From assembly GCA_903930515.1 (NCBI GenBank), contig CAIYYW010000200.1:1-16459 (forward strand): a stretch of DNA of 16,459 nt. Reading direction: 5' to 3'. The position numbers and the translations under genes are program-made. Positions 14,632 to 16,459 of this stretch are shown here, piece by piece (positions within the stretch are counted from its first letter, which is position 1; each line of letters opens with the position of its first letter). The DNA is from an uncultured delta proteobacterium (GTDB lineage: Bacteria > RBG-13-61-14 > DRUE01). The notes under the pieces are model-generated. The model was not told where the DNA came from. It ran no database searches and saw nothing but the letters and a program-made list of their open reading frames with translations.

Positions 14632-15606
14632 TCACCCCTCTTTCAAGAGCGGAGATTCTCCCTCCAGGATCCGCTTCTGGATTTCCTTCCAGCGGTCATA
14701 GGTTTGCTCGAAAATCGCCAGGTCTTCCTCGCTGTCCGCGTCCAGCGCCGTGCCCGGCCCGATCGTTTCCTGGGCGGTGAACCGGGTCTGCATAATCGGG
14801 TTGACATAATCCAATACCGCCTTCAGGCTCACCCGTTTCCGGGCCAATTCCCGTATCCGGCCCCAGCCTTTGAGGTCTGCGGACTTTGCGAGTTGGAGCA
14901 TTAAGAAATACCAGATCCCGCGCGGGCCGATTCCGAGACTGAGGATGTATCCAAGGGAGCCGAAGATATTTCTCCATTTCTTCTGATAGCGGAAGTTGTA
15001 AATCATTGGGATAAATTCCTCCATCACAAATCCGAGCTTGAGGGGTCGGAGCAGGAACACATTGGAGTGTCGGATGATCTGATCCCGGAAGCAAAAATAA
15101 GCAAAACTAAATCCCGGGGTCTGCGGGGTATGCAAGAAAGGCAGGAGCATTTCCTTGCGGGTGACTCCGAAGATGAGGTCGTAGTCATTGATTGGAGACT
15201 GCCGGATAAAGGCGTCAACCTCTGCCGGCTCCAGCATCGGCATATCGCAAGTCGTCGCCAGAACCACTTTATCCGCTTCCTTGGACCCGGCCAGGCTCCG
15301 ATAGTCCGACCCGCGCACATATTCCGGAAAGGAGTGCAACGATCCATACCACAGGTTCTGGAAGATGCTCTCGCCCTGGTCAATGTAGCTGATCGGCTTC
15401 CGGAATTGGAACTCCGATAATGATTCCCGAACCCGCTCCACCGGTCCCACAATATGGATTGAACGGATTTCCTCCGAAGCGTCCAAAGCCCTCAGCACAT
15501 AGCTCAAGAGCGGCTTGCCCTTCAGCATCAGGAAGGCCTTGTTGGTCCCATAAAGAAGACGCGCGCCCTTGCGGTCTCCGGCCAAAACTATTGCGTCTAT
15601 CCCCAT
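14632..15606 (-). CDS. MobA-like NTP transferase domain protein
   Basis: 325 residues from ATG 15606. An upstream in-frame ATG at 15687 is rejected because the added 27 residues lack homology and would be encoded by a hairpin and a likely -10 box. The N-terminal domain is a MobA-like nucleotidyltransferase: IDAIVLAGDRKGARLLYG, TNKAFLMLKGKPLLSYVLRAL (Lys23 in place of the usual PKxL lysine), and VVLATTCDMPMLEP with metal-binding Asp121. The glycine-rich loop is loose compared with the AGGxSxRMG consensus. The C-terminal 150-180 residues are unassigned; they are rich in aromatic residues and end with GTALDADSEEDLAIFEQ, a closing typical of this group. Likely it transfers a nucleotide to a phosphosugar or similar substrate; target unknown. 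TACAAT (15631-15626) could be the -10, but no convincing -35 is seen. Confidence 0.75.
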   Translation of the reverse strand: MGIDAIVLAGDRKGARLLYGTNKAFLMLKGKPLLSYVLRALDASEEIRSIHIVGPVERVRESLSEFQFRKPISYIDQGESIFQNLWYGSLHSFPEYVRGSDYRSLAGSKEADKVVLATTCDMPMLEPAEVDAFIRQSPINDYDLIFGVTRKEMLLPFLHTPQTPGFSFAYFCFRDQIIRHSNVFLLRPLKLGFVMEEFIPMIYNFRYQKKWRNIFGSLGYILSLGIGPRGIWYFLMLQLAKSADLKGWGRIRELARKRVSLKAVLDYVNPIMQTRFTAQETIGPGTALDADSEEDLAIFEQTYDRWKEIQKRILEGESPLLKEG

Positions 15607-15670
15607 CTTTAATCCCGGTTTCCAGATTGTAGCAAAACCGTCTAAAAAAGAAAACCGGCTCCAAATACAC

Positions 15671-15849
15671 CCCTGGGGCGCAGGCACACTTGCCTGCGGT
15701 GAGTTTGCCGAACTGCCGAGCCAAGTTGAGATTGGCGTCCTGAATGTGCGAGAGCCTTTAGGCGCGATGCCTTTAAATCGCTTGAACCTCTTGCTCGTGC
15801 TTCGGCTTCCCCTTGGCTCGCGATGAATTTAACCCACGCAACCCCAGGG
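15671..15849. repeat. Multi-branched inverted-repeat region (structured RNA or MITE-like element)
   Basis: No convincing gene lies here. The ends are complementary: CCCTGGGG (15671-15678) and CCCCAGGG (15842-15849). Within them are a perfect 8-bp hairpin (15679-15698), a small AGTT/AACT hairpin (15702-15714 region), a 9-bp arm CGAGCCAAG (15717-15725) with CTTGGCTCG (15812-15820), and an inner GCGAT/ATCGC hairpin (15764-15781). All arms nest without conflict, giving a multi-way junction. This suits either a structured RNA or a non-autonomous mobile element with terminal inverted repeats. Transcribed strand and copy number in the genome cannot be told from the window. Confidence 0.4.
15679..15698. 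repeat. Perfect 8-bp palindromic hairpin (REP-like)
   Basis: CGCAGGCA, a CACT loop, then TGCCTGCG. Such short G+C-rich hairpins between genes are typical of REP-type palindromes; only this one copy is visible in the window. On the - strand it is upstream of the NTP-transferase gene; it lacks a T-tract and so is not a classical terminator. Confidence 0.5.
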
Positions 15850-15856
15850 CGCCCCC

Positions 15857-15944
15857 GACCATTTAGCAGGTCCAAATGATCTCATAGGCGAAAAGCCTCG
15901 GATAGATGCCTTGACCGCGAAATGGTCAAAACAATCACGAGATC
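15857..15944. other. Segment with mutually exclusive helices and pseudoknot-type pairing
   Basis: GACCATTT (15857-15864) is the exact complement of AAATGGTC (15920-15927). The same bases can form local hairpins: GACC (15857-15860) with GGTC (15869-15872), and TTGACC (15911-15916) with GGTCAA (15924-15929). AGGC-GAAAA-GCCT (15886-15898) lies inside. GATCTC (15878-15883) complements GAGATC (15939-15944) across the long helix, a pseudoknot topology. No known RNA family was recognised. Coding signs are absent. Confidence 0.35.
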
Positions 15945-15954
15945 AAAATCCGCT

Positions 15955-16023
15955 GCCGGGGAACCGGCCCTGGCCGCGGCCCGAAAATTCCGGTGGATCA
16001 GGCTGCTCCGGGACCGCCGGTCC
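15955..16023. other. G+C-rich hairpin cluster
   Basis: GCCGG-GGAA-CCGGC (15955-15968) is a perfect stem with a GNRA tetraloop if read on the + strand. GGCCGCGGCC (15972-15981) is a palindrome. GGACC-GCC-GGTCC (16011-16023) is another stem that can extend through CTCC/GGGG with one mismatch. No gene is apparent. The GNRA loop favours the + strand as the RNA strand if the region is transcribed. Confidence 0.35.
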
Positions 16024-16059
16024 GGGGCGCCCTCCAAGTCAAAGAAATTCGGCTGTTAG

Positions 16060-16111
16060 GGGAAGTATTTCACTTGACCTGGGCTTTCATAGATGACCCC
16101 CGGGGCTTCCC
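16060..16111. repeat. Imperfect inverted repeat before the nuclease gene
   Basis: GGGAAG (16060-16065) pairs with CTTCCC (16106-16111); CCCCGGGG lies just inside the right arm. It is downstream of the nuclease gene on the - strand. There is no T-tract, so calling it a terminator is not justified. Confidence 0.25.
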
Positions 16112-16134: not shown

Positions 16135-16157
16135 ATAATTATTTTCCATAATTATTT
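16135..16157. repeat. Short A+T-rich tandem repeat at the composition boundary
   Basis: ATAATTATTT occurs at 16135-16144 and again at 16148-16157, a 13-base period. The second copy covers the nuclease stop codon. It marks the change from G+C-rich non-coding sequence to A+T-rich coding sequence and may be a junction scar or chance in low-complexity DNA. Confidence 0.4.
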
Positions 16158-16459
16158 ATTTAAAATAACCTGATATGCCCAATCTCTATCTATCTTGTTT
16201 TCAATATCTGCTTGTAATTGCTTATCTAATTCTGGGAAAAAGTCCAGATGCGTTTTAGCCTCTAGCTCATCTATACTAGAAAGATGGCTCAAGATGTCAT
16301 CACTGCGAGGAGTTTCCTGATCAAAAATAAACGCTGGTATTTTTATTGAAGAAAGCCTATCCCCTGGCACAATCAGAATTACTTTCCAATATCCTGAGGG
16401 AATTTCATGGTTTTTCTTTGTTCTCGGCAATTTAGGCATTTTCCTTTCATATAAAGTGC
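16152..16459 (-). CDS. DNA/RNA non-specific endonuclease (NucA/EndoG type), C-terminal part
   Basis: The reading frame stays open to the window edge, so this is the 3' part of a longer gene. An ATG at 16439 is probably internal: the codons before it read TLYER, and a LYER-type stretch followed by IPSGYWKVIL matches the middle of Endonuclease_NS proteins. After that come IPAFIFDQETPRSDDIL, LSSIDELEAKTHLDFFPEL and a short helical tail; the last pattern (ideally IDEIExxTGLDFFP) is diagnostic. The catalytic DRGH His and metal-binding Asn lie outside the window. These enzymes cut DNA and RNA non-specifically and are usually secreted or used as toxins; a signal peptide cannot be checked. The gene is strikingly A+T-rich with A/T-ending codons, unlike all its neighbours, which suggests recent transfer. 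Confidence 0.8.
   Translation of the reverse strand, partial: TLYERKMPKLPRTKKNHEIPSGYWKVILIVPGDRLSSIKIPAFIFDQETPRSDDILSHLSSIDELEAKTHLDFFPELDKQLQADIENKIDRDWAYQVILNK

What the first reader, a model, noticed from the sequence alone, without database searches (positions are those of the whole stretch)
15671..15849. Nested complementary arms form a multi-way junction in a gene-free interval
Five pairs of exact complementary arms (8, 8, 4, 9 and 5 bp) nest without conflict over 179 bp, closed by CCCTGGGG/CCCCAGGG. That is more order than expected in random intergenic DNA, and no ORF explains it. Possible identities: an unassigned structured RNA, a MITE with terminal inverted repeats, or a REP-type cluster moved by a RAYT transposase elsewhere in the genome.
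Basis: partly seen in the sequence, partly recalled or inferred. Interest (0 to 1): 0.6.

Follow-up and report, generated by a model that had tools for sequence, protein, structure and literature searches.

The report
Mosaic of scattered hairpin DNA repeats
The supposed many-armed RNA is really a patchwork of short hairpin repeats (two of the REP type, about 150 copies in this genome) lying side by side next to the broken end of a jumping gene, so it is an ordinary repeat cluster in a poorly known bacterial lineage.

Summary
The arms are in the sequence, but the 179-bp interval is not one structure. It is a mosaic of at least four independently dispersed repeats: A (15664-15698), E (15699-15725), extended B (15738-15800) and C (15806-15845). 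It abuts D (15848-~16100), a solo right end of an IS110/IS1111-type insertion sequence.
A has 108 copies in this genome and 55 in a congener (reversed-pattern control: 2 and 0). B has 42 and 25 (control 0). Both have covarying stems and a 5' tag like REPs of the GTAG superfamily. In the congener a REP-associated tyrosine transposase (above the NCBIfam cut-off) is flanked by A palindromes, and a 55%-identical homologue in Gemmataceae by near-identical ones. A is therefore very probably a RAYT-dispersed REP; B is REP-like.
The two long-range "junction" stems join different repeat families, occur together nowhere else, and are at background frequency. No conserved multi-way RNA spans 15671-15849.
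A candidate conserved three-way RNA lies just to the right (15877-15945) in the right-end relic, where IS1111 elements carry bridge RNAs; no related transposase was found in this genome.
Verdict: REP cluster plus IS relic; new members of known kinds.

The parts
15664..15698 (+). Module A: REP-like palindrome with 5' flank, AATACACCCCTGGGG-CGCAGGCA-CACT-TGCCTGCG; contains the left outer arm and the 8-bp hairpin of the finding
   Evidence: 108 copies (<=3 mismatches) in own genome, 55 in same-genus G001, 7 in G002; reversed-pattern control 2/0/0; contexts; covarying stem; flanks a RAYT in G001
15699..15725 (+). Module E: GTGAGTTTGCCGAACTGCCGAGCCAAG; ends with the left 9-bp arm; the BLAST match to L007 starts at 15688
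   Evidence: One exact and one 3-mismatch further copy in own genome, none in G001/G002; the copy at C199 interrupts a B element
15738..15800 (+). Module B, extended: TCCTGAA-TGTGCGAGAGCCTTTAGGCGCGATG-CCTTTAAATCGCTTGAACCTCTTGCT; REP-like core 15745-15769
   Evidence: Core 42 copies in G000, 25 in G001, 0 in G002, control 0; extension matched in G001 copies L013 and L018
15806..15845 (+). Module C: CTTCCCCTTGGCTCGCGATGAATTTAACCCACGCAACCCC; carries the right 9-bp arm and the CCCC of the right outer arm
   Evidence: 36-40 bp at 95-98% identity at three other places in own genome (C5, C63, C34), there at the end of a longer dispersed repeat
15848..16100 (+). Module D: solo right end of an IS110-family (IS1111-group-like) insertion sequence; supplies the GG of the right outer arm
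   Evidence: 85% identical over 254 bp to sequence directly 3' of an IS110 transposase in G001 C513; first part also beside an IS110 transposase in G002 C40
15877..15945 (+). Candidate bridge-RNA core: three-way junction, outer stem 15877-15883/15939-15945, hairpin 15886-15889/15895-15898, hairpin 15911-15917/15923-15929
   Evidence: Similar local fold in G000, G001 and G002; sequence strongly conserved; one double compensatory change in the outer stem, one seen by eye in the third hairpin; only three sequences
16084..16091 (+). CTTTCATA: right-hand subterminal inverted repeat of the insertion sequence (partner TATGAAAG at the left end of the G001 element)
   Evidence: Read directly from the ends printed; close to the common 3' limit TTTCATAGATG of the solo right ends
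14632..15606 (-). Flanking gene, MobA-like nucleotidyltransferase; the interval lies 5' of it
   Evidence: Pfam NTP_transf_3; orthologue 78% identical in G001 C683 without any of the repeats upstream

Best explanation
The interval is an accretion of short dispersed repeats in a gene-free gap, not a single functional RNA. At least two members, A and B, are REP-type palindromes: hairpins of about 20-25 bp with a GTGG/GGGG (A) or mostly GTGC (B) 5' tag. A is most likely copied by a REP-associated tyrosine transposase, which in studied systems recognises the tagged hairpin in single-stranded DNA (general mechanism from the literature, not shown here). E and C are further dispersed repeats of low copy number. 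The block ends against a transposase-less right end of an IS1111-type insertion sequence. The apparent multi-way junction arises because palindromic, G+C-rich repeats of different families lie next to each other. Shown: multi-copy dispersal, hairpin covariation, separate occurrence of the modules, RAYT flanked by A in the congener, IS110 linkage of D. Inferred: that the RAYT moves A, the order of insertion, and the absence of a present function.
For: A and B counts far above reversed-pattern controls. Stem covariation: B pair 11/18 is C-G, A-T or G-C, A pair 7/16 is G-C, A-T or C-G. G001 C320 encodes a 152-aa protein scoring 86.7 bits against NF047646 REP-associated tyrosine transposase (cut-off 80), with A palindromes at 1254-1274 upstream and 1770-1790 and 1819-1839 downstream; no A-type hit in 31 kb around the other Y1 genes of the genus. 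The 55%-identical Gemmataceae homologue has four GCCAGACACTCTTGTCTGGC palindromes around it, three of them tagged GTGG (L150). Across the 55 homologous RAYT loci tested, A-type palindromes lie within 300 bp of the gene 21 times in 32 kb, against 10 in 266 kb further off. Modules occur separately: E without C at C199, C without E at C5, C63 and C34. IS110 linkage of D.
Against: No RAYT flanked by A or B was found within the window's own genome; that genome is estimated 93% complete in 401 contigs, and many copies lie near contig ends. No RAYT was linked to B. The tag of A in the window copy is GGGG, not GTGG. Two nested long-range stems are rare in shuffles of the 179 bp alone. Insertion boundaries and target duplications were not established; no empty-site pair exists, since the congener's flank has diverged.
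Confidence: 0.88

Rival explanations
1. One structured non-coding RNA (multi-way junction closed by CCCTGGGG/CCCCAGGG) spans 15671-15849.
For: Exact nested arms, fold better than shuffles, rare in local shuffles.
Against: Equally good fold on both strands; no Rfam match even at E 5; no other copy of the whole in the own genome or 40 relatives; closing arms belong to different repeat families; not beside the orthologous gene in the congener; nested pairs of this kind are at background frequency.
Confidence: 0.04
2. The interval is one MITE with CCCTGGGG/CCCCAGGG as terminal inverted repeats.
For: Terminal complementary 8-mers, repeated DNA, short length.
Against: The left 8-mer lies inside the conserved 5' flank of A (AATACACCCCTGGGGCGCAG in L006 and L008); the right 8-mer is formed at the C/D seam; no second copy bounded by the two; no target duplication visible.
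Confidence: 0.03
3. The REP-like repeats are kept as functional elements (transcription terminators, mRNA-end hairpins, protein-binding sites) rather than being passively spread.
For: Stem covariation and mostly intergenic position would fit; such roles have been proposed for REPs elsewhere (abstract of PMC3733652).
Against: No conservation of copies at orthologous places was seen; copies nest in and interrupt each other; some lie in genes, for example in frame in a GH3-like gene of G001; the window copies lie 5', not 3', of the neighbouring gene.
Confidence: 0.15

Closest known systems
GTAG-superfamily REPs dispersed by RAYT (PMC3733652, PMC2817692, PMC8266576)
   Same: Short tagged palindromes in tens to hundreds of copies, clustered, covarying stems, RAYT flanked by the palindromes; B has the layout described for GTAG-1 families (tag, unpaired dinucleotide, here GA, stem-loop, 3-base motif, here GAT, on the far side).
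   Different: Tags are GTGG/GGGG (A) and mostly GTGC (B) rather than GTAG; host belongs to a little-known uncultured lineage (relative of Deltaproteobacteria bacterium RBG_13_61_14); RAYT linkage seen in the congener, not in the window's genome.
IS1111 group of the IS110 family with bridge RNA in the right end (PMC11208160)
   Same: In the congener: IS110 transposase, short left and long right non-coding end, subterminal inverted repeat TATGAAAG/CTTTCATA, conserved multi-stem RNA candidate in the right end.
   Different: The window copy is a solo right end without transposase; RNA expression and guide pairing are untested.
IS elements that target REPs (PMC1525189)
   Same: IS110-family remnant lies directly beside REP-like repeats.
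   Different: A precise insertion point inside a REP was not shown here.

Membership tests
REP (GTAG superfamily), module A | Short palindrome in high copy number per genome | tested here: met
   108 and 55 copies against 2 and 0 in control
REP (GTAG superfamily), module A | Stem kept by complementary changes | tested here: met
   Pairs 7/16, 5/18 and 2/21 vary on both sides
REP (GTAG superfamily), module A | 5' unpaired GTAG-like tag | tested here: inconclusive
   GTGG or GGGG in most contexts; GTGG is a described variant (PMC3733652), the window copy has GGGG; RAYT homologues in other phyla carry GTAG or GTGG with similar palindromes
REP (GTAG superfamily), module A | RAYT gene flanked by the repeats | tested here: met
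   In congener G001 C320; not found in the window's genome
REP (GTAG superfamily), module B | High copy number, covarying stem | tested here: met
   42 and 25 copies, control 0; pair 11/18 covaries
REP (GTAG superfamily), module B | RAYT flanked by the repeats | tested here: not met
   No B within 1.5 kb of the Y1 genes of G000 or G001; B therefore called REP-like only
IS1111 group of IS110, module D | IS110 transposase with long right end | tested here: inconclusive
   Relatives in G001 and G002 have it (Pfam above cut-off; NF033542 125.8 and 133.3 bits, just under its cut-off of 140); the window copy has no transposase and none was found in the genome
IS1111 group of IS110, module D | Subterminal inverted repeats of 7-17 bp | tested here: inconclusive
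   TATGAAAG / CTTTCATA, 8 bp, read by eye from the ends of the G001 element; only the right half is left in the window
IS1111 group of IS110, module D | Bridge RNA in right end binding the recombinase | not testable with these tools
   Conserved three-way fold only
Rfam structured RNA | Match to a curated family | tested here: not met

The most novel reading that the evidence does not exclude
The solo right end beside the repeats still makes an orphan bridge-type RNA (15877-15945) that works in trans with an IS110 recombinase elsewhere, and REP-like repeats are its targets; the eleven other right-end matches in the genome would then be a non-autonomous, RNA-guided element population.
Probability: 0.04. 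Interest if true: 0.6.

Novelty: new member of a known kind. Interest (0 to 1): 0.25.

Why it matters
It removes a false lead (no new multi-way RNA at these coordinates) and replaces it with a concrete account: a little-known lineage carries two abundant REP-like families, one of them linked to a RAYT whose homologue in Gemmataceae carries almost the same palindrome. That gives a further example of RAYT-REP pairing far from the well-studied Proteobacteria, and a small natural set for asking how a RAYT and its palindrome stay matched. The IS1111-type right end gives a candidate bridge RNA in the same gap.

Tried and rejected
No tRNA or tmRNA. Rfam at gathering score and at E 5 gave nothing credible. 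Y1 transposase genes of the own genome were examined for A or B flanks: none. D was first taken for a MITE; all-against-all comparison and ORFs showed it to be the end of an IS110 element. E was tested as a high-copy repeat: only two further sites, one of them with 3 mismatches. A first background count of nested stems was spoiled, probably by runs of N and repetitive loci (second part), and was repeated without N. The orthologous site in the congener has no repeats but has diverged and is followed by a different gene, so it gives no clean empty site.

Full report
Observation. The interval 15671-15849 lies in a gene-free gap 5' of a MobA-like nucleotidyltransferase gene. The ORF is listed from a GTG at 15687, but DNA similarity to the congener's orthologue ends at 15607. 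The interval folds better than shuffles on either strand. In shuffles of the 179 bp alone the nested long-range stems are rare, but the proper background is genomic DNA: the window has another such nested pair in a coding gene, and unrelated bacterial DNA holds about three per 16.5 kb. So the local hairpin is a real feature and the junction is not more than background.

Repeats. A BLAST search of the own genome with 15640-15880 gave, apart from the self match, 46 short matches. None covers the whole interval; they fall on separate sub-stretches. Among 40 other genomes only the one same-genus genome had matches. Reading and aligning these places divides the interval into A 15664-15698, E 15699-15725, extended B 15738-15800 and C 15806-15845, followed by D 15848-~16100. 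Only about 12 bases between E and B and 5 between B and C are left unassigned.

A and B. Pattern counts with a reversed-pattern control are 108, 55 and 7 copies of A in G000, G001 and G002 (control 2, 0, 0), and 42, 25 and 0 copies of B (control 0). Stem positions vary with pairing mostly kept. Contexts show A with GTGG or GGGG before the palindrome and B as GTGC-GA-stem-TTYA-stem-GAT. That is the layout described for GTAG-1 REPs (tag, unpaired dinucleotide, stem-loop, conserved 3-base motif; PMC3733652).

Link to a RAYT. The genus has several Y1 transposase genes. One in G001 (C320, L032) scores above the NCBIfam cut-off for REP-associated tyrosine transposases and has A palindromes on both sides. 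A scan of GTDB genomes with this protein gave homologues in Planctomycetes, WOR-3, Acidobacteria, Cyanobacteria and others. In 55 of these loci A-type palindromes are concentrated next to the gene (21 in 32 kb within 300 bp, 10 in 266 kb beyond). The closest homologue other than itself, 55% identical in Gemmataceae (L150), carries GCCAGACACTCTTGTCTGGC four times, three of them after GTGG. This supports A being the RAYT's REP. No such RAYT was found in the window's own genome, which is incomplete. B has no RAYT link.

Why the junction is not a unit. The left outer arm is part of A's recurrent flank AATACACCCCTGGGG (L006, L008). The right outer arm CCCCAGGG is made of the end of C, the two bases at the seam, and the beginning of D. 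The inner 9-bp stem pairs E with C, but E occurs without C (C199) and C without E (C5, C63, C34). The congener has no such cluster upstream of the orthologous gene. Rfam has no match.

D and a misplaced intuition. D is 85% identical over 254 bp to the sequence just 3' of an IS110-family transposase in G001, and its first part lies beside a second one in G002. These elements have a short left and a long right end and, in G001, the subterminal inverted repeat TATGAAAG/CTTTCATA (read by eye), as in the IS1111 group, whose bridge RNA lies in the right end (PMC11208160). In D a three-way junction at 15877-15945 is predicted in all three genomes, with small differences. It is strongly conserved, with one double compensatory change counted in the outer stem. 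A further one in the third hairpin (GACC/GGTC to GGCC/GGCC) was seen by eye only. Three sequences are too few for a covariation test, and the shuffles reach the observed values often. The window's own genome has no detectable transposase of this kind but eleven further right-end matches, so D is most simply a relic.

Verdict. REP-type repeat cluster beside an IS110/IS1111 relic. Shown: repeats, copy numbers, separate modules, RAYT-A linkage in the congener, IS110 linkage of D. Inferred: mobility of A by the RAYT, the order of events, and that the relic's RNA is not in use.

Noticed in passing
window 15877-15945 and 16084-16095: Candidate bridge-RNA core in an IS1111-type solo right end; the core contains TCATAG and ATAGATG, which recur together as TTTCATAGATG at the element's end, as a donor guide might. 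Conserved in two related genomes.
   Followed up: partly
L116, L126, L122, L113, L119, L124, L127, L128 (own genome); L114, L117, L120 (G001): Eleven further right-end matches of the same IS type in the own genome and more in G001, most ending near TTTCATAGATG with varied left limits; L116, L126 and L122 share 340-550 bp of further sequence without an evident long ORF, perhaps a non-autonomous element.
   Followed up: partly
L020 (G001 C453) 1501-1527: An A palindrome lies in frame inside a GH3-like glycoside hydrolase gene (reading KLSQAGVPAPQ), reminiscent of intragenic palindromic elements. The gene name is from reading the sequence, not a family search.
   Followed up: partly
L002, L003, L004, L008, L010: A further dispersed repeat of roughly 250-300 bp (GCTGTTTCAAGGGCAA... 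to GGCGGTATAAGCCGAGCC...) with module C at one end in some copies; not classified.
   Followed up: no
L024, L027, L030 (G000) and relatives in G001 and G002: About 320-330-aa Y1 transposases with a RAYT-like N-terminus and, in the one scanned (L024), a weak DnaA-like C-terminal match; many copies in G002; no A or B palindromes nearby in G000/G001.
   Followed up: partly
window 16152-16457: Partial gene at the window's end with similarity to DNA/RNA non-specific endonuclease (Pfam Endonuclease_NS).
   Followed up: no
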